Of a DNA stretch of 6,732 nucleotides, positions 1 to 6,732 are shown in pieces. Positions within the stretch are counted from its first letter, which is position 1; the number at the start of each line of letters is the position of its first letter. The DNA comes from Actinomycetota bacterium (GTDB lineage: Bacteria > Actinomycetota > Actinomycetes > S36-B12 > CAIYMF01). A model generated the notes under the pieces. The model saw nothing but the letters and a program-made list of their open reading frames with translations, searched no databases and was not told the origin of the DNA. Location of the stretch: positions 1 through 6,732 of the forward strand of contig WLOZ01000103.1 of NCBI GenBank assembly GCA_009699025.1, written 5' to 3'. A program made the translations under genes and the position numbers.

Positions 1-1
1 C

Positions 2-781
2 CAGGTGCTCGACAGCCTGGCCGACTACGTCGAGCAGGATCTCGAGGCGCGGCGCAAGATCACCAGCGCGCTGACCTACCCGGCCGTCGTGCTGACCATG
101 GCGCTCGTGACCGTGCTCATCCTCTCCGTGGCCGTGCTGCCCCAGTTCGAGAAGTTCTTCCAGTCGCTGTCGATCGAACTGCCGCTCACCACCCGCCTGC
201 TCCTGGCGATCACGCAGTTCATCACTCGGTGGGGACTCCTCGTTCTGGTGCTCGTGGTGGTGGGCAGCGTGACCTCGTGGGTGCTGATCCGCCGGGGGGT
301 GGGCAAGCCCTTCTTCGACCGAGTGCGCCTGCGAATGCCCGTCCTCGGCTCCCTCTACAACCTGGTGCTGACCGAGCGCTTCTGCCGCCTGATGGCCTCG
401 CTCGCCAACGCGGGCGTCCCGCTCACCACGGCGATGAGGGTCACCTCCGAGACGATGAACAATGTCGTCTTCCGCGACGCGCTCCTCGAGGCGCAGCAGG
501 GCATGGTCGAGGGCGGGGGCCTGTCGGGCCCGCTCGCCGCCACCGGGGTCTTCCCCAGCACCGTCGTGCAGATGATCCGCGTCGGCGAGGCCACCGGAAC
601 CCTCGAGGACCAGATGGAGGTGGCAGCCACCTTCTACGAGCGGGAGCTCGACCACAAGATCAAGAAGGTCACCACCCTGATCGAGCCTGCGGTGGTGCTA
701 CTGGTCGGGCTCGTCGTCGGGTTCGTCGCGGTCGCGCTCGTGAGCGCGATGTACGGAATCTTCCAGCAGGCGCCAACGTGA
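2..781 (+). CDS. GspF/PilC family inner-membrane platform protein (5' partial)
   Basis: C-terminal part of a type II secretion F / type IV pilus PilC protein, the polytopic membrane platform that couples the cytoplasmic assembly ATPase to pilin insertion into the fibre. The frame is open from the window edge, so the GTG at 5 is probably internal. Family proteins are about 400 aa; about 259 are here, so roughly 140 N-terminal residues lie upstream. Numbering from the GTG: hydrophobic segments at about 26-45, 76-95 and 228-250. Family hallmarks are the RRKI..AL.YPAVV stretch before the first segment, ELPL.TR..LA after it, the repeat-like cytoplasmic block R..LMASLANAGVPL, the FPS.VVQMI.VGEATG motif (E195 within it) followed by L, then FYE.ELD and the IEPAVVLL start of the last helix. 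The stop overlaps the next gene by four bases. It resembles GspF/PilC rather than the TadB/TadC pair of Tad pili. Whether the machine is a pilus or a secretion system cannot be decided from this gene alone. Confidence 0.95.
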   Translation, partial: QVLDSLADYVEQDLEARRKITSALTYPAVVLTMALVTVLILSVAVLPQFEKFFQSLSIELPLTTRLLLAITQFITRWGLLVLVLVVVGSVTSWVLIRRGVGKPFFDRVRLRMPVLGSLYNLVLTERFCRLMASLANAGVPLTTAMRVTSETMNNVVFRDALLEAQQGMVEGGGLSGPLAATGVFPSTVVQMIRVGEATGTLEDQMEVAATFYERELDHKIKKVTTLIEPAVVLLVGLVVGFVAVALVSAMYGIFQQAPT

Positions 782-1431
782 CGCCCCGGCCGCAGGGCAT
801 CGACCAGGGACGCATGGCTCGCACGGCTGGCGCGCCCGGCCGACGGCTGCGCGCGATCGCCAGCGACCGCGGCGAGACGCTGATCGAGAGCCTGGTCTCC
901 ATCGGAATCGTCGGGCTCGTGGTGATCGCCCTCATCGGCGCGGTGACGCTGTCGGGCTCTCTCACGACGATCCTGCGGGCGCAGTCGGCGTCCCAGTCGG
1001 CTGGTCGGTCGGTGTACGAGGCAGTGTCGAGCTTCGTCGTGCCGAAGGCCACGCCGCTCTACCGCAACGATGCCAACACCGGAAGGGCCAGCATCTGCAA
1101 CACCACCCTGACCGCCCAGCTCACCGCGGTGGCGAGCGCGGCCGCCGCCGGCAGTGCTGGCGTGACGCTGGACACCGCCGGAATCACCTACGGACTCGTC
1201 GTCGTCAGCGTCGACAGCAACGCGACCATGACCCAGACCGTGTACCCCTGCACCAGCCTCGCCGGCCACCCGAACGCCTCCGCGGGCGAGGCGGCCACGG
1301 CCCTGCAGGTCACCCTGCCCGTCACCGCCATGGGCCACACCACCACCGACCTGGGCAATGGCCAAGTCGTGCGCAGGGACGTCAGCTTCCCGTCGGTGCT
1401 CAAGGCGAACGTCTACCAGGGCACCGCATGA
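778..1431 (+). CDS. Minor pilin / pseudopilin, PilV/GspI-like
   Basis: Predicted 217-aa prepilin. From the GTG start there is a basic leader ending at G32, then ETLIE with Glu at +5 (E37), then a hydrophobic helix to about residue 60. This is the class III signal cut by a prepilin peptidase; the +1 residue is Glu instead of the usual Phe/Met. The mature part is beta-rich and Ala/Thr-rich with only two cysteines, C107 and C158, possibly one disulfide. The GTG at 778 was chosen because it overlaps the upstream TGA (GTGA) and has AGCAGG about 7 bases upstream. An ATG at 814 is an alternative: it would give a more ordinary 20-residue leader, with AGGGA only 3 bases upstream. The PilV/GspI assignment rests on position and the ETLIESL motif, since the globular domain shows no diagnostic motif. 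It probably belongs to the tip or priming complex with the next two proteins. Confidence 0.85.
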   Translation: MTPRPQGIDQGRMARTAGAPGRRLRAIASDRGETLIESLVSIGIVGLVVIALIGAVTLSGSLTTILRAQSASQSAGRSVYEAVSSFVVPKATPLYRNDANTGRASICNTTLTAQLTAVASAAAAGSAGVTLDTAGITYGLVVVSVDSNATMTQTVYPCTSLAGHPNASAGEAATALQVTLPVTAMGHTTTDLGNGQVVRRDVSFPSVLKANVYQGTA

Positions 1432-2021
1432 GCCCGGCACGTCGCGACGCGAGCGTCGACAGCGACGCCGGGTTCACCCTGCCCGAGCTGCTGGTCGCCA
1501 TCACCATCATGGTGCTGGTCATGGGAACCCTGGGGTTCACGCTGGTCTCAGTGCTCCGCACGATGAGCGGCGCGATGGAGCGGGCCGAGCGCTCCAAGGA
1601 CACCACTCTCGTCGGCTACATGTTCCCGAGCGACATCAACTCCGCGTCGACGATCACCACCGGCGGGGCCGCCCCGTGCGGCACCGGCACCCCGCTGTTC
1701 ACCCTCACGACCACCAACGTGCGCACCACCTCGAACAAGAGCGTTTGGTACGCCGTCAACGCCGGGGGGGCGCTCATGAGGTTCGAGTGCGCCACTGGCG
1801 GAGGGGTCGCGAACAGCACCCAACTCGCCGACTCGGTCAGCAACCCGGTGATCACCTGCGAGAAGCAGACGGCCACTACCCCGTACTTCGCCACCGTCGC
1901 CGGGTGCGCACCAGTCGCCAGCGTCAATCGTGTGGCGTTTAGCCTGACGCTCAACCCTGCAACCAGGGGCACAGCGGTGGACGTGCCCCAACCCCTGACC
2001 CTCTTTGGAGTGATGCCCTGA
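1428..2021 (+). CDS. Minor pilin / pseudopilin, PilW/GspJ-like
   Basis: 197-aa prepilin with a textbook class III signal: a 15-residue leader ending at G15, then FTLPELL with Pro at +4 and Glu at +5 (E20), then a hydrophobic helix to about residue 43. After the helix an amphipathic stretch (RTMSGAMERAERSKDT) leads to YMFPSDINSA. That pattern resembles the conserved start of the GspJ/PilW globular domain, which is why I prefer this assignment. Four cysteines follow (C84 and three later), enough for two disulfides after export. Near the C-terminus VNRVAFSLTLNP looks like a terminal beta strand. The ATG overlaps the upstream stop (ATGA), with CAGGG 6 bases before it. The stop overlaps the next ATG by one base (TGATG). 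A run of seven G at 1764-1770 lies within the gene. The fibre role is inferred from family and position. Confidence 0.9.
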   Translation: MSPARRDASVDSDAGFTLPELLVAITIMVLVMGTLGFTLVSVLRTMSGAMERAERSKDTTLVGYMFPSDINSASTITTGGAAPCGTGTPLFTLTTTNVRTTSNKSVWYAVNAGGALMRFECATGGGVANSTQLADSVSNPVITCEKQTATTPYFATVAGCAPVASVNRVAFSLTLNPATRGTAVDVPQPLTLFGVMP

Positions 2022-5000
2022 TGGCTGGCCGTGTCCTCGGGCGACTGCGCGACATTCGCGATGACGCGGGCGCCTCGCTCGTGTTCGTGCTGGTCGCGAT
2101 CGTGGTGCTCTCGCTCATGGTCGGCGGGCTCACTCGCGCGATCAACGGCGGGCTCAACACCAACAAGCTGATCAACGCGGCCCAGAGCGGCGACCTCAAC
2201 CAGCCCAACAGCAAGTTCCTGACCGAGAAGGCCCTGCTCCAGGGCATCTCGGCCTTCACCGGCTCGTCGGGCCAGGGCGAGCACGCCTCGCACCGCAACG
2301 GCGGACGGTGCTTCGGCGCGACGGGGGTGAAGGGGTCGGGCAGCAATTTCCTCGACTTCCCCATCGGCGCCCCCAAGCTGCGCGTCTTCTGCACCGTGTA
2401 CCAGCCGAACAACACTGCCAACGGCACCTTCGTGCAGGCCAACTCCCAGCCCGACATCGTCAACGGCATCGCCCTGCAGGAGAAGCTGTACGTCTGCGGC
2501 ACCGGCAACTACTACAACTCGGGCTCGCTCACGGCGGTCACCAGCATCAACTTCTTCACCGACAGTGGCTGCGCAACCGCCCTGACGACGGCCAAGGACA
2601 CGACCTGCGGCGCGGCCACGGAGGCCAACCAGCTCGACACGACGTCGGGCTGCCCCCGCCTGTACAACTACGACGCGGTGCCGGGCGACGGCGTGGTCGC
2701 GACCAAGGCGTGCACCCCCAGCAGCGGGAACCCCATCTACGCAGAGAGCGGCAAGAACTGCCTCGACACGGCGCCCGACATCAGCACCGACCTCATCACG
2801 CCCTCCACCGTGGCGTCGGCCACACCGGCCGACGCGCACCTGGTCGACATGGCGAACGCAGACTCCAGCTCGGGCGCGGCGAGCGCCACCTGCTCGGCCG
2901 CGACAGCCAGGCTCGCCCCCGGCGTGTACGACGACACCATCAACCCGGTCTCGATCTCGAGCACGACGACTCCGGATGGCAGTAACAAGGAGACGATCAC
3001 CACCACGACGGCGCACGGGCTGTCGGTGGGCGCGTGGGTCTCGATCACCGGCAACAGCCAGTCCGGCAACAACGCGATCTTCCAGGTGACGTCAGTGTCG
3101 TCCTCAGAGGGATCGACCACGAAGTTCACGATCACCAACTCGGCCAACGTCTCGTCCACGAGCAACTCGGGCACCGCGGGCTACTACGTGGGCGCCCAGC
3201 CGTTCCTGAACGCCATCACGAGCGGCAAGTCGGCCTGCGTGCGCCAGAGCTCGACCCTGAGCGGCTCGTCGTTCACCAGCTCAAGCTCGTCGTTCACCGT
3301 GGCCGATGACACCGGCTTCCTGCCCGGTGAGACCATCACGGTCGACGGGTTCAGGTACACCGTCAACAGTGTCAGCAATAACGTGCTCAGCGTCACGAAG
3401 CTGAGCGGGGTCTCGGCGACGATCCTGACAGGGACCGTGGGCGTGCCCCCCAAGGACCTGAGCTCGCTGACAGTCGCCAATGTCGCCAAGCCCATCACCG
3501 CCGCTGCCCTGAGCCCACAGCCGAGGTCGACGATCTCGACCGTCACGTCGACGCCGCAGAAGGCACTGTCGGCGATCACGACGATGAAGACGATCTCCAG
3601 CATCGTGGCCAACGATGGCTCCAGGACGATCTCCGTCAACACCAGCACCGACCACGGGTTCACGACGGGAACGTCGGTCACCATCGCTGGAGTGACGGCC
3701 AACGGCGTCACGTTCAACGGCACGTACAGCGTGACGCGGAGCGACGCCAACACCTTCACCTACTCGGTGGCCTCGTCGTGCAACGCCCCTGGCAAGGCCA
3801 CCACCTGCACCGGAACCACCGGTTCGACGACGACGGCTGACGGCGCCAGCTCAGTACTGGTGGGCACCACCTCGGCGACCCACGGGTTCGGCAGCGGCGA
3901 CGTCATTGCCCTGTCTGGCACCAACAACGTCGCCTTCGACGGCAAGAACTGCACCTGGCTCACCTCGCCCACGACGAGCAGTTTCGCGTGCACCATCTCG
4001 CCGGCGACCACTGCCTCACAATTCGCGCTCACCGGCTACGCGACCGTGCCCATCACGCGTGTCACTATCACCACCTCTGCGGCCTCGGGCTTCTCGGTCA
4101 ACGATGACGGTGTCATCTCAGGAACGGGTGCGTCTGCCGTCGACGGTGCCACCTGCACCATCGCGACCATCAGCACCACAGCAATCGCCTGCGACCTCGC
4201 CAGCGCCATCAGCACCAACGTCTCCGCGAGCACCGGAACCTTCACTGTTCCCGAGAGCACGGTCAGGGTCACCGCAACCGCGCACGGACTCGGCTCCAAC
4301 TCCGCGACGGCCAAGGTCACCATCGGCAGCGTGGGCAGCCCCTTCGACGGCGACCACACGGTGACCATCGTCGATGCCAACACGTTCACCTACACGCTGG
4401 CCGCCGCCCAGACGGCCAATGCCTCGGCCACGTCCGGCACGGTCACCAAGTGGGTCACCCTGCTCAACGGCACCACCACCGCAGCCCATGGCCTCGCGAC
4501 CAACAACGTGGTGAACATCTCCGGCACCGGTAATGCCACCTACGACGGCAAGTCGTGCACGATCGCGTCGGTGCCCACGACCACCACCTTCACCTGCAAC
4601 CTCGCAACCTCGGTCGGGCCCACCACTGCCGCGTCAACCGGGCAGGTGGGCCTCACCAACACCGCTCTCGCCATCACCACGACATCGGCCCACGACTTCA
4701 CCTCGGGCGAGACGCTGTCGATCAGCGGCACAGGGGCCGGCACGCTCGATGGCAAGTCGTGCACCGTGGCCTCGTCGCCGGTTCCCACCGCAACCTCGCT
4801 GACCTGCACCCTTGCCACGGCGCTCGGCTACACGCAGGTCAGCGCGGGCTCGCTGACCCTCACATCGTCGCGCTCATTCGACAGCGGCGGCGCAGTGGTG
4901 GCGTCGCGCACCTGTATCGACACCAAGCAGAGCTCGAGCACGAACTACGACCCCTGGTGCAAGGGCGGAACGTTCGTCCCGCTCATCACCGCGCTGCAGA

Positions 5001-6535
5001 CCACCAGCGGATCCACCGCCCTCACGGTGTCGACCTCGTCGTACCACTGGCTGTCGGTGGGCGACTCGGTGGCACTCTCGGGACTCGGCAGCACCCTGGA
5101 TGCCAAGTTCAAGGCCAGCTACACCGTGACCAGCGTGCTGGGCCCTCTTCAGTTCACGGTCACGCTCGGCAGCACGCCCACCTGCTCGATCTCCGGCTCG
5201 CCCAACCCCTGCACCTATACGTCCGCCTCGAGTCCGGCGCTGGGAGGCACCCCCAAGGCGACCAAGGGGGCCTGGCCCACGATCACCTCGGTGACGATGG
5301 ACTCCGGCGACTACTTCCTCGACCTCAACGACGACTGGAGCATCAACTCCTCGGCCATCACGATCAACGCCGGCCTGCTTCCGGAAGCCAACTGGATCAC
5401 CAACCCCGACGGCACGGTCCAGAAGTGCCTGCCGAGCTACGACTCCACCAACCCTGAGGACACCGTGCCCCCCGCCCATGGCGTGAGCCTGGTGTTCGGC
5501 GGCCAGGACTCCACCGGCGACAGCGGGCTGAGCTGGACCGCTGGCAACGTGACGCTCTGTCCGAAGCCGCTCGACGTGGCGGGTGGGTCGACCATGCGCC
5601 CCGTGGCCGTGTACGGCCCGGCCGCTGCGATCACCGGCACCCTCGCGGCCCTGCCCGGCTACCTCCTCACCACCAAGGCCGGCAGCACGGTCAGCGACAC
5701 GATCGCCGCCCGGTCGACGTGCGCGGCCTCCGCCGCTGCCAGCTACTGCGACATCTTCGAGATGCCCGGCAGCCGCTCGCCGGACGGCACCGTGATGCTC
5801 ATGTTCGGTGCGGTCTTCGCCCCCAACAGTCGTGTGTCACTGACCATGAACCCGTTCAACGACGACTCGATGTCGCTCTATGGCGTCGTCGCCAACGCCA
5901 TGAGGGTGGTGACGTCCGGGACCCAGGTGGCGAGCACTCCGGGCCGCAACCCCCGTGGCAGCGGCAAGCCGTCGCGGCAGAACAAGCAGGTACGGGTGCG
6001 CTTCACCGCCTATGCGTGCTTGACCAGCGCCGGGGTCGCCATTCAGTACTCGAGCAAGGCCGTGTGCAGCTACACGACCGCGCCGGATACCAAGTGGCTG
6101 GCGCCGGGCTCCAACTCCCGCTCCGCGCCGTCGCTCAAGGTGACCAAGGTCGCCAGCAGCGGCACGACGGTGACGGTGACGACCAGTAGCACGCACGCGC
6201 TCGCCGTGGGCAACTGGGTCACCTTCGGCACTGGGTCACCGTCTGCGCTCACGGGCAAGGTGTGGCGGGTGGCCACGGTGCCGACGGCCACCACGTTCAC
6301 CGTCGAGCTGAGCACGGCCGCCTCAGTGTCGGGGTCGAGCGGGAGGGTGAGCTGGACCCCGGACTCGTGCCCTCCGTCGACCACGTTCCCCTACGCCGGC
6401 TGCATCACGGTGGTGATTGACTCCGCCACCGTGAACAACTCCGGGGGACCGTCGTACAACGTCGTGGGTCCGTACCTTCCCCCGTCGCCCGAGTGTCCCG
6501 CGGGCGAGGCCGCCTGTTGGATGATCCTGTTCTGA
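2021..6535 (+). CDS. Giant modular pilin-like surface protein (PilX/GspK position), candidate fibre-tip adhesin
   Basis: 1504 aa. The N-terminus is pilin-like: basic leader, G17, then ASLVF and a hydrophobic helix to about residue 36. Phe replaces Glu at +5, as in GspK-type pseudopilins, which lack that Glu. Residues 45-320 are Cys-rich and unassigned, ending in PGVYDD (300-305). Then come a repeat module (323-389), FLNAITSGKSAC (395-406), a different small beta module (425-475), a Ser/Thr/Pro linker to 534, a tandem array of six modules (535-947), a Cys-containing spacer (WCKGG) and a further module (994-1067). A C-terminal scaffold (about 1080-1370) has SGDYFLDLNDDW (1095-1106), GVSLVFGG (1154-1161), FGAVFAPNS and LYGVVANAMRV, resembling beta-helix-like C-terminal domains of actinobacterial pilus proteins. 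A last module (1371-1445) precedes a tail ending in a hydrophobic WMILF. I count 34 cysteines. There is no LPXTG sorting motif. GspK is usually about 300 aa and PilX about 200, so this is far oversized. GGAG lies 10 bases before the ATG. Export and a tip location are strong inferences; adhesion is a hypothesis. Confidence 0.85.
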   Translation: MAGRVLGRLRDIRDDAGASLVFVLVAIVVLSLMVGGLTRAINGGLNTNKLINAAQSGDLNQPNSKFLTEKALLQGISAFTGSSGQGEHASHRNGGRCFGATGVKGSGSNFLDFPIGAPKLRVFCTVYQPNNTANGTFVQANSQPDIVNGIALQEKLYVCGTGNYYNSGSLTAVTSINFFTDSGCATALTTAKDTTCGAATEANQLDTTSGCPRLYNYDAVPGDGVVATKACTPSSGNPIYAESGKNCLDTAPDISTDLITPSTVASATPADAHLVDMANADSSSGAASATCSAATARLAPGVYDDTINPVSISSTTTPDGSNKETITTTTAHGLSVGAWVSITGNSQSGNNAIFQVTSVSSSEGSTTKFTITNSANVSSTSNSGTAGYYVGAQPFLNAITSGKSACVRQSSTLSGSSFTSSSSSFTVADDTGFLPGETITVDGFRYTVNSVSNNVLSVTKLSGVSATILTGTVGVPPKDLSSLTVANVAKPITAAALSPQPRSTISTVTSTPQKALSAITTMKTISSIVANDGSRTISVNTSTDHGFTTGTSVTIAGVTANGVTFNGTYSVTRSDANTFTYSVASSCNAPGKATTCTGTTGSTTTADGASSVLVGTTSATHGFGSGDVIALSGTNNVAFDGKNCTWLTSPTTSSFACTISPATTASQFALTGYATVPITRVTITTSAASGFSVNDDGVISGTGASAVDGATCTIATISTTAIACDLASAISTNVSASTGTFTVPESTVRVTATAHGLGSNSATAKVTIGSVGSPFDGDHTVTIVDANTFTYTLAAAQTANASATSGTVTKWVTLLNGTTTAAHGLATNNVVNISGTGNATYDGKSCTIASVPTTTTFTCNLATSVGPTTAASTGQVGLTNTALAITTTSAHDFTSGETLSISGTGAGTLDGKSCTVASSPVPTATSLTCTLATALGYTQVSAGSLTLTSSRSFDSGGAVVASRTCIDTKQSSSTNYDPWCKGGTFVPLITALQTTSGSTALTVSTSSYHWLSVGDSVALSGLGSTLDAKFKASYTVTSVLGPLQFTVTLGSTPTCSISGSPNPCTYTSASSPALGGTPKATKGAWPTITSVTMDSGDYFLDLNDDWSINSSAITINAGLLPEANWITNPDGTVQKCLPSYDSTNPEDTVPPAHGVSLVFGGQDSTGDSGLSWTAGNVTLCPKPLDVAGGSTMRPVAVYGPAAAITGTLAALPGYLLTTKAGSTVSDTIAARSTCAASAAASYCDIFEMPGSRSPDGTVMLMFGAVFAPNSRVSLTMNPFNDDSMSLYGVVANAMRVVTSGTQVASTPGRNPRGSGKPSRQNKQVRVRFTAYACLTSAGVAIQYSSKAVCSYTTAPDTKWLAPGSNSRSAPSLKVTKVASSGTTVTVTTSSTHALAVGNWVTFGTGSPSALTGKVWRVATVPTATTFTVELSTAASVSGSSGRVSWTPDSCPPSTTFPYAGCITVVIDSATVNNSGGPSYNVVGPYLPPSPECPAGEAACWMILF
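2987..3187 (+). repeat. HGL-type beta module 1 (residues 323-389)
   Basis: First copy of the repeat module. It opens with a Thr-rich strand, then AHGLSVGAWVSITG, a variable turn, then FQVTSVSSSEG and KFTITNSANV. It lies alone, between PGVYDD and FLNAITSGKSAC of the scaffold, separated from the main array. It has no cysteines. The pattern (strand, HG(L/F), G..V.I.G, turn, TVT.V, TFT) is of a kind I recall from phage structural proteins and bacterial surface proteins, where profile searches often label it FCCH-like. That label is from memory and untested here. Confidence 0.75.
3293..3445 (+). repeat. Distinct small beta module (residues 425-475)
   Basis: A module different from the HGL type: FTVADDTGFLPGETITVDG, then FRYTVNSVSNNVLSVTKL and a Thr/Gly-rich end. 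The pattern 'F.V.d..gF..G..I.V.g..YTV.SV..n.L.V' recalls short beta modules in phage and surface proteins. It occurs once in the window and follows a Ser-rich linker, after the scaffold motif FLNAITSGKSAC. It may be a distant relative of the HGL modules, sharing the G..I.V.G core and the following strand. Confidence 0.5.
3623..4861 (+). repeat. Tandem array of six HG-type modules (residues 535-947)
   Basis: Six consecutive divergent copies: 535-608, 610-676, 678-743, 745-812, 813-878 and 879-947. The His or equivalent positions are H545, H621, S689, H755, H823 and H891, giving steps of 76, 68, 66, 68 and 68 residues. Shared core: Thr-rich strand, HG(F/L), then V.I.G, then (F/Y)DGK.C or NGTY, then TTTFTC or ANTFTY. 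Copies 2, 3, 5 and 6 carry a Cys pair (C-x11 to x14-C) flanking the strand turn. Copy 1 instead has C-x8-C after TFTY, and copy 4 has none. At DNA level GGCAAGTCGTGCAC is identical at 4547-4560 and 4751-4764, exactly 204 bases apart. Copy 3 is degenerate (SGF for HGF) and copy 6 has HDF. About a third of the residues in copy 5 are Ser/Thr. Confidence 0.8.
5000..5221 (+). repeat. HG-type module with C-x8-C extension (residues 994-1067)
   Basis: A copy separated from the main array by a ~45-residue spacer containing RTCIDTK and DPWCKGG. Core: LTVSTSSYHWLSVGDSVALSG, then KASYTVTSV and LQFTVTLG. HW replaces HG. After the TFT-like strand it has TPTCSISGSPNPCTYTS, a C-x8-C loop at the same place as in the first array copy (SSC...TTC near residues 585-600). 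It is therefore closest to that copy in architecture. It ends shortly before the C-terminal scaffold motif SGDYFLDL. Confidence 0.65.
6131..6355 (+). repeat. HG-type module, last copy (residues 1371-1445)
   Basis: A C-terminal outlier copy: VTVTTSSTHALAVGNWVTFG, a short turn, GKVWRVATVPTATTFTVELS, then a Ser/Gly-rich end at W1445. HA replaces HG and there are no cysteines. It is embedded between two parts of the C-terminal domain (CSYTTAPDTKW before it, DSCPPST and CITVVIDS after it), about 300 residues from the previous copy. Confidence 0.65.
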
Positions 6536-6711: not shown

Positions 6712-6732
6712 ATGCATCGCAAGTTTGAAGAA
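6712..6732 (+). CDS. Start of a new gene (3' partial), possibly the major pilin
   Basis: Only seven codons are visible: MHRKFEE. They follow a purine-rich ribosome binding site and a candidate promoter, and they come after a 176-base gap, the first real gap in the operon. A short charged, basic-then-acidic start is what the cytoplasmic leader of a prepilin often looks like, and major pilin genes often lie next to minor pilin genes with their own promoter. The identity is inferred from place and seven residues only, and another pilus-assembly gene is equally possible. Confidence 0.45.

What the first reader, a model, noticed from the sequence alone, without database searches (positions are those of the whole stretch)
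2021..6535. A 1504-residue protein in the GspK/PilX slot: candidate giant pilus-tip adhesin
Seen: a pilin-like N-terminus (G17, then ASLVF and one hydrophobic helix) fused in one frame to about 1450 residues of modular, Ser/Thr-rich, Cys-rich sequence, directly after two prepilin genes. Known: GspK and PilX are third members of tip-priming sets and are usually about 200-320 aa; some Gram-positive minor pilins carry large adhesive modules. Inference: the fibre displays a very large multi-domain tip that contacts a surface, host or substrate.
Basis: partly seen in the sequence, partly recalled or inferred. Interest (0 to 1): 0.72.

Follow-up and report, generated by a model that had tools for sequence, protein, structure and literature searches.

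The report
Pilus-tip pilin carrying nine beta-barrels
An uncultured actinobacterium appears to make a giant pilus protein in which an ordinary tip-type pilin carries nine small barrel domains like those of phage tailspikes, so its pilus may end in a large multivalent binding head.

Summary
In detail: one intact 1504-residue frame (2021-6535) follows two prepilin genes, between pilC and pilA, under purifying selection (dN/dS 0.14 against a 79% identical homologue). The size comparison needs correcting: in Actinobacteria this slot holds a distinct family of about 690 residues (641-888, median 687, n=127), not 200-320. The window protein is such a pilin (about 695 residues) plus about 800 residues of inserted modules. 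Nine repeats of about 55 residues pass leave-one-out tests (9 of 9); seven lie between two neighbouring core motifs (C406 and G1096). The repeat profile matches the beta-barrel of the phage phi92 endosialidase (4hiz, E 3.6e-6) and, 0.9 bits under cut-off, Pfam E1_FCCH. A related pilin (L042) carries another insert at another loop, matching phage head-decoration proteins (E 9e-29); family member P0010 has a CBM-like jelly roll there. Best reading: a tip-type modular pilin whose core accepts exchangeable binding modules; here a multivalent, probably glycan-binding array. Tip position, pilus incorporation and ligand are inferred. New variant of a known kind (modular pilins).

The parts
1..781 (+). 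C-terminal 259 residues of PilC/GspF inner-membrane platform protein (gene starts before the window)
   Evidence: T2SSF PF00482 119.8 bits over cut-off; GspF TIGR02120 219 bits, under its cut-off of 424 as expected for a partial protein
778..1431 (+). minor prepilin 1 (217 aa; GspI/ComGE-like), GETLIE: has Glu at +5
   Evidence: NF041013 18.9 bits, gspI 15.2 bits and N_methyl 16.9 bits, all below cut-off; 77% identical to its L001 counterpart
1428..2021 (+). minor prepilin 2 (197 aa), GFTLPE: has Glu at +5
   Evidence: N_methyl PF07963 24.9 bits and TIGR02532 21.6 bits, both over cut-off; 83% identical to its L001 counterpart
2021..6535 (+). the giant third-slot (PilX-type, tip-type) modular pilin, 1504 aa
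2021..2170 (+). leader (residues 1-17, probable cleavage G17|A18, no Glu at +5) and hydrophobic pilin helix (about 18-50)
   Evidence: residues 10-39 align to family positions 13-42, hhalign Prob 94.3; helix 14-71 in the model of family member P0010
2171..2968 (+). Cys-rich N-terminal region (residues 51-316), conserved among the giants, ending in PGVYDDT
   Evidence: A1; 120-316 alone gives no match to the wider family
2984..3148 (+). repeat 1 (residues 322-376), between core motifs PGVYDD and PFLNAI..C
   Evidence: leave-one-out 21.7 bits
3176..3256 (+). core motif PFLNAITSGKSAC (residues 386-412; C406)
   Evidence: joined-core hhalign to family
3257..3592 (+). residues 413-524, unassigned inserted module; highest dN/dS of the pieces measured
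   Evidence: dN/dS 0.226; no Pfam, NCBIfam or PHROG match over this stretch
3617..3784 (+). repeat 2 (residues 533-588), the best E1_FCCH match
   Evidence: PF16190 E 1.5e-6 at 536-581, 28.6 bits against a cut-off of 29.5; leave-one-out 22.2 bits
3836..4009 (+). repeat 3 (606-663), Cys pair 644/657
   Evidence: leave-one-out 48.7 bits
4046..4213 (+). repeat 4 (676-731), Cys pair 712/724
   Evidence: leave-one-out 29.6 bits
4244..4408 (+). repeat 5 (742-796)
   Evidence: leave-one-out 21.5 bits, best of 300 shuffles 17.0
4448..4615 (+). repeat 6 (810-865), Cys pair 846/859
   Evidence: leave-one-out 55.3 bits; part of the two-repeat model
4652..4828 (+). repeat 7 (878-936), Cys pair 914/929
   Evidence: leave-one-out 43.3 bits; part of the two-repeat model
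5003..5170 (+). repeat 8 (995-1050), just before the core resumes
   Evidence: leave-one-out 21.8 bits
5261..6142 (+). C-terminal core (1081-1374): GDYFLDL..W.I, GVSLVFGG, LSWTAGNVTLCP, RPVAVYGP, C1234/C1243, GAVFAPNSRVSL
   Evidence: 1081-1230 aligns to family positions 265-373, Prob 95.9, E 5.5e-9; its reversed and shuffled versions Prob under 1; 1229-1385 matches the A5 HMM, 19.6 bits
6158..6322 (+). repeat 9 (1380-1434) near the C-terminus
   Evidence: leave-one-out 24.9 bits; phrog_9998 best stretch 1373-1442
6359..6532 (+). C-terminal tail (1447-1504), conserved among the giants
   Evidence: A1; dN/dS 0.068 with near-saturated dS; no match to the wider family
6712..6732 (+). first codons (MHRKFEE) of the major pilin gene pilA, cut by the window end
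   Evidence: in L001 the gene in this place reads MHRKYEELRAKESGFTLVELLIV

Best explanation
A modular minor pilin of the tip-type (GspK/PilX-like) slot. Shown by sequence: a pilin leader and helix; a core shared with the roughly 690-aa third-slot pilin family of Actinobacteria; nine related repeats inserted at several places of that core, seven of them between C406 and G1096; relation of the repeats to phage endosialidase/FCCH-type beta-barrels. Inferred: prepilin peptidase cleaves after G17; the pilin enters the fibre first, together with the products of 778-1431 and 1428-2021, and ends up at the tip because its bulk and missing Glu5 fit best there; the solenoid-like core holds the array outward; the barrels bind a polysaccharide or glycoprotein with avidity, anchoring the cell or letting it haul on a surface, polymer or neighbour. 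The core seems to be a platform on which modules are exchanged (CBM-like jelly roll, head-decoration-type repeats, endosialidase-type barrels).
Confidence: 0.62

Rival explanations
1. The array is a passive stalk or spacer: it lengthens the tip, or keeps the protein out of the fibre body, and real binding is done by the core or by the unassigned module 413-524.
For: Near head-to-tail barrels with short linkers could form a stalk; no binding residues were identified; repeats 3, 4, 6 and 7 carry regular Cys pairs that could stiffen it.
Against: The nearest solved relative is a barrel of an enzyme family in which the barrel is described as a sugar-binding site (PMC12632334); repeats 1 and 9 sit singly at other places, which a stalk does not need.
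Confidence: 0.2
2. A DNA receptor at a competence pilus tip, working like Thermus ComZ.
For: Same kind of slot, and a pilin with a solenoid-like domain encoded next to a partner minor pilin; ComZ binds DNA (PMC6561018).
Against: The protein is slightly acidic overall (Lys+Arg 4.7%, Asp+Glu 5.4%; residues 311-1010 net charge -4). Competence genes were not searched for.
Confidence: 0.12
3. A secreted or cell-wall protein that merely uses a pilin-like leader and is not built into a fibre.
For: No pilus data exist; two other genomes of the order have weak FCCH matches in frames without a pilin leader (G031, G164; their neighbour genes were not examined).
Against: Place between minor pilins and pilA; core shared with third-slot pilins of the phylum; pilin-length helix in the model of a family member.
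Confidence: 0.06

Closest known systems
Actinobacterial PilX-type third-slot pilins (P0004-P0130; named 'Tfp pilus assembly protein PilX' by some sources, 'hypothetical protein' by many; Kribbella, Amycolatopsis, Lentzea and others)
   Same: Slot (read for L042, L043, L045), leader, missing Glu5, core motifs PG.YDD / LN..C / G.Y.F / W.I / GV.F.FGG / G.V.LC / P..VYG / YAP
   Different: They are 641-888 aa; P0010 carries a CBM-like jelly roll after VYG and has about 10 residues where the window has a roughly 690-residue insert; the window has about 34 residues at the jelly-roll site
Modular type IV pilins: Streptococcus sanguinis PilB (vWA) and PilC (lectin) (PMC8179133, PMC9934059)
   Same: Pilin module plus binding modules, thought to sit at the pilus tip
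   Different: Modules inserted at several places inside a large core, not one module appended; nine copies; 1504 aa against the 860-aa protein named as the most extreme multi-domain case in the 2021 survey
Thermus thermophilus ComZ (PMC6561018)
   Same: Tip-type pilin with a large beta-rich domain inserted in the pilin fold, partner pilin encoded alongside
   Different: ComZ binds DNA; the passages read describe no repeat array; here the solenoid is only suggested by a family model
Phage endosialidase beta-barrel (PDB 4hiz) and Pfam E1_FCCH
   Same: Repeat profile E 3.6e-6 to 4hiz; small five-strand domain in the model
   Different: No catalytic propeller; tandem copies; other endosialidases only at E 0.35; no phage record matched by tblastn; Pfam cut-off missed by 0.9 bits

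Membership tests
Type IV prepilin, GspK/PilX-like third slot | Short leader ending in Gly, then one hydrophobic N-terminal helix | tested here: met
   RDDAG17|ASLVFVLVAIVVLSLMVGGL; aligned to the family helix region, Prob 94.3; model of P0010 helix 14-71; the window's own helix was not modelled
Type IV prepilin, GspK/PilX-like third slot | No Glu at +5, unlike the other minor pilins (feature recalled) | tested here: met
   F22 at +5; pilins 1 and 2 have Glu; 127 of 127 readable of 130 lack Glu
Type IV prepilin, GspK/PilX-like third slot | Gene follows two minor prepilin genes behind pilC | tested here: met
Type IV prepilin, GspK/PilX-like third slot | Match to Pfam PilX_N (PF14341) | tested here: not met
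   No PilX_N match at E 1 or less; so it is not filed under PF14341, only under the actinobacterial third-slot family
Type IV prepilin, GspK/PilX-like third slot | Located at the fibre tip | not testable with these tools
   needs microscopy or cross-linking
Actinobacterial PilX-type third-slot family (A7) | Colinear core motifs | tested here: met
   Slices 1-120 and 1081-1230 match without joining; 1225-1374 weak (E 0.004); 120-316 and 1447-1504 none; colinear weak stretches in 3 of 3 uncut giants, whole-protein scores negative with A7
Modular pilin (PMC8179133) | N-terminal IPR012902-type methylation motif plus a domain not specific to pili | tested here: inconclusive
   Extra domains present; Pfam N_methyl does not match this protein at E 1 or less; InterPro itself was not available
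Pfam E1_FCCH (PF16190) | Score at or above 29.5 bits | tested here: not met
   28.6 bits, E 1.5e-6; so called FCCH-like only
Phage endosialidase beta-barrel | Sequence profile and fold match to the barrel domain | tested here: met
ComZ-type pilin | Beta-solenoid inserted between the last two strands of the pilin sheet | tested here: inconclusive
   Short-strand region 230-415 in the P0010 model; weak beta-helix tailspike matches

The most novel reading that the evidence does not exclude
Pilus tips of free-living Actinobacteria evolve like phage receptor-binding proteins: a conserved tip-pilin platform has several insertion sites into which phage virion-surface modules (endosialidase-type barrels, head-decoration repeats) and carbohydrate-binding modules are swapped, retargeting the pilus. 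In this lineage the barrels were taken from phages and amplified to nine copies.
Probability: 0.33. Interest if true: 0.72.

Novelty: new variant of a known kind. Interest (0 to 1): 0.52.

Why it matters
Minor pilins decide what a type IV pilus touches, but how that specificity changes is poorly known. Here one can see a conserved tip-type core, several insertion sites and three kinds of inserted module in related proteins, two of them related to phage surface proteins. It gives a defined, testable object (repeats 2-7) for asking what uncultured Actinobacteria bind with their pili, and it extends the modular-pilin idea to multi-copy arrays inserted inside the core.

Tried and rejected
Rejected: (1) a frame artefact or neutral expansion: dN/dS 0.14 and an intact homologue. 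(2) Size as such being the surprise: the slot is about 690 aa in this phylum. (3) Calling the repeats plain E1_FCCH: under cut-off. (4) Multiple alignment of the giants with short relatives by MAFFT: misaligned across the inserts, replaced by slice-wise profile comparison. (5) Pfam on L042, L043, P0010, P0014 and two L092 proteins: no match at E 0.1; on L046 PilX_N 21.5 bits against a cut-off of 25.5. (6) tblastn of the array to phages, of P0010 to plasmids, and P0003 in viral contigs: nothing. (7) ComZ does not appear among the structural matches shown for the family model; this excludes nothing. (8) FCCH (PF16190) in 162 genomes of the order: 3 with E at or under 0.001, none over the cut-off; in 386 genomes of the phylum sample: 1, the L001 genome at this locus; divergent copies would be missed.

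Limits: one search lists 120 of 296 hits and only proteins of about 380-1209 aa could appear, so the length range is bounded by the search; searches scored only the 7,972-7,999 candidates sharing most words. The 127 lengths are those of P0004-P0130 (together). Of the 20 regions, third-slot lengths could be read for 3 of this locus type (L042, L043, L045) and 4 of the second locus type (L046, L053, L058, L059); L044 has an in-frame stop and was left out; in the other 12 the contig ended early or my crude ORF choice showed no clear third pilin. Starts of L042 and L043 proteins were chosen by eye. Eight literature searches listed no paper that by its title or abstract start describes this protein or an FCCH/endosialidase-barrel pilin; they cover only the held open library and only the listed rows. 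Passages of PMC6668835 and PMC3244431 gave nothing on this pilin family. One search aligned gapped rows by mistake and was discarded; one search replaces it. Before the once-only check I wrote that P0003's extra repeat and the jelly roll share one loop; one search shows neighbouring places (after, and before, the C1234 counterpart), and the text is mended.
Full report
WHAT IS THERE. The window holds the end of pilC (1-781), two minor prepilin genes (778-1431 and 1428-2021), one open frame of 1504 codons (2021-6535), and the first seven codons of a major pilin gene (6712 on). The three minor-pilin genes overlap their upstream neighbours by four, four and one base, much as in L001. L001, from an actinobacterial MAG whose isolate name begins LacPavin (contig JAPLAU010000028.1), shows the whole locus: pilB (by eye), pilC, pilin, pilin, giant (1513 aa), pilA. 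The two pilins before the giant are 77% and 83% identical to their L001 counterparts, and the giant is 79% identical over its length. dN/dS between the two giants is 0.138 overall, 0.140 in repeats 2-7 and 0.134 in the C-terminal core, so repeats and core alike are under purifying selection. No whole genome is held for the window.

THE CORE. In this phylum that comparison misleads. In the same order, the gene after two small prepilins behind pilC encodes 870 aa (L042), 693 aa (L043) and 774 aa (L045); a second, more distant pilus locus type in these genomes has 529-595 aa there (L046, L053, L058, L059). pilB precedes pilC in L043 and L045; in L042 pilA does. The L045 protein opens a family: 296 hits in the wider search, 120 listed. 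Over P0004-P0130 (127 proteins) length is 641-888 with median 687; the search could only return about 380-1209 aa. Some sources call them 'Tfp pilus assembly protein PilX'.

The giants belong with this family. Without any joining, window slice 1-120 matches family positions 13-42 (Prob 94.3) and slice 1081-1230 matches 265-373 (Prob 95.9, E 5.5e-9), while reversed and shuffled slices reach Prob 3.5 or less. Joining the pieces around the repeats raises the match to Prob 98.4-98.5 and brings in the PGVYDD and LN..C motifs; since I chose the cut points by eye, that gain is flattering. Against this: slices 120-316 and 1447-1504 do not match; 1225-1374 matches weakly (E 0.004; 19.6 bits with the A5 profile). 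Over the whole uncut proteins the A7 profile scores below zero, as expected with long inserts but also with a true non-relative; its best stretches are weak (10.2 bits or more only at the N-terminus). What speaks for kinship there is that the same three stretches come in the same order in 3 of 3 giants. In an order-wide genome scan the family profile hit the N-terminus of the L001 homologue at E 4.7e-4. Cut free of repeats, the three giants measure 695, 691 and 698 aa, the usual size of the family.

Like the family, the giant has no Glu at position +5 (127 of 127 readable of 130 proteins, by a simple pattern), whereas both preceding pilins do. That this marks the tip pilin of GspIJK-like sets is recalled knowledge.

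THE INSERTS. Nine repeats of about 55 residues begin near 322, 533, 606, 676, 742, 810, 878, 995 and 1380. Each scores 21.5-55.3 bits with a profile built from the other eight; the best of 300 shuffles scored 5.4-17.0. Seven (2-8) lie between C406 and G1096, two motifs that in P0010 are ten residues apart (C255, G265), between a short helix (242-248) and strands (259-269) of the model. Repeat 1 lies between PGVYDD and LN..C, and repeat 9 near the C-terminus. P0003 (1603 aa; 47% identical over the best 15%, 37% in the alignment) has five related repeats at E under 1e-3, partly at other places: one in the Cys-rich N-terminal region, and one directly after the counterpart of C1234. So repeats have been gained, lost or moved between homologues. 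The window protein has about 34 residues where P0010 has the jelly roll.

A SECOND CASE. In L042, a related locus of the same order, the stretch after the VYG motif holds four copies, in two blocks, of a different repeat. It matches phrog_20658 'head decoration' at E 9.3e-29 and, by tblastn, six phage records at E 1e-4 to 7e-4, three annotated as head decoration (two of these are the same phage). This is the place where P0010 has the jelly roll; P0003's extra barrel sits just behind it, on the other side of the next Cys. Thus three kinds of module occupy insertion sites of one pilin core.

HOW IT PROBABLY WORKS. Shown: slot, leader, core kinship, inserts, constraint. Inferred: processing after G17; priming of the fibre with the two small pilins; tip position; outward display of the barrels; avid binding of a sugar-rich surface. 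Precedents (passages read) are S. sanguinis PilB and PilC, modular pilins with vWA and lectin modules, and Thermus ComZ, a beta-solenoid pilin proposed at the tip. The 2021 survey of modular pilins reports over 1,200 proteins and names an 860-aa protein with 12 motifs as the most extreme case; it required the IPR012902 motif, whose Pfam form does not match this protein, so such proteins could be missed. The same paper lists pilins with an S74 peptidase module; that S74 is also a tailspike chaperone domain is recalled, not looked up.

HOW RARE. The giants' C-terminal core (A2) was found in 1 of 166 genomes of the order and 1 of 394 of the class sample, the same genome; a second genome (G002/L002) holds the N-terminal 480 residues, cut by a contig end. 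The wider family was found in 10 of 162 order genomes and 26 of 396 phylum genomes, many by the N-terminus only. FCCH-type matches in 386 phylum-sample genomes occur only at this locus of the L001 genome.

VERDICT. The finding is real and of moderate interest. It is not a 1500-residue oddity in a 300-residue slot but, most likely, a normal-sized actinobacterial tip-type pilin that has accumulated phage-tailspike-like barrels. New variant of a known kind.

Noticed in passing
L042 (G003:C6) 5328-6215, minus strand: A related third-slot pilin carries four copies of a repeat matching phage head-decoration proteins (phrog_20658, E 9.3e-29) at the place where family member P0010 has a CBM-like jelly roll.
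   Followed up: partly
L092 (G789:C10) 5007-8384 and 8747-12268: Two large PilX-type pilins (1126 and 1174 aa as bounded by eye) encoded one after the other, with no Pfam match; inserts of unknown kind.
   Followed up: partly
P0010 residues 373-540: This PilX-type pilin contains a jelly roll resembling CBM4/CBM61 and other jelly rolls, with no Pfam match; it may give soil Actinobacteria carbohydrate-binding pilus tips.
   Followed up: partly
window 3836-4828 (residues 644/657, 712/724, 846/859, 914/929): Four of the nine repeats carry a Cys pair 12-15 residues apart, a possible intra-barrel disulfide.
   Followed up: no
L044 (G118:C17), third slot: The third-slot pilin frame of this genome is interrupted by one in-frame TAA; real or an assembly error cannot be told.
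   Followed up: no
L046 (G001:C10): The same genome has a second type IV pilus locus whose third-slot pilin (559 aa) weakly matches PilX_N (21.5 bits, cut-off 25.5); a prepilin peptidase-like gene and a chorismate synthase-like gene (by eye) follow.
   Followed up: partly
L103 4576-6057 and L104 4623-7355, minus strand: Weak FCCH-like matches in two other order genomes lie in apparently secreted proteins with no pilin leader (by eye).
   Followed up: partly
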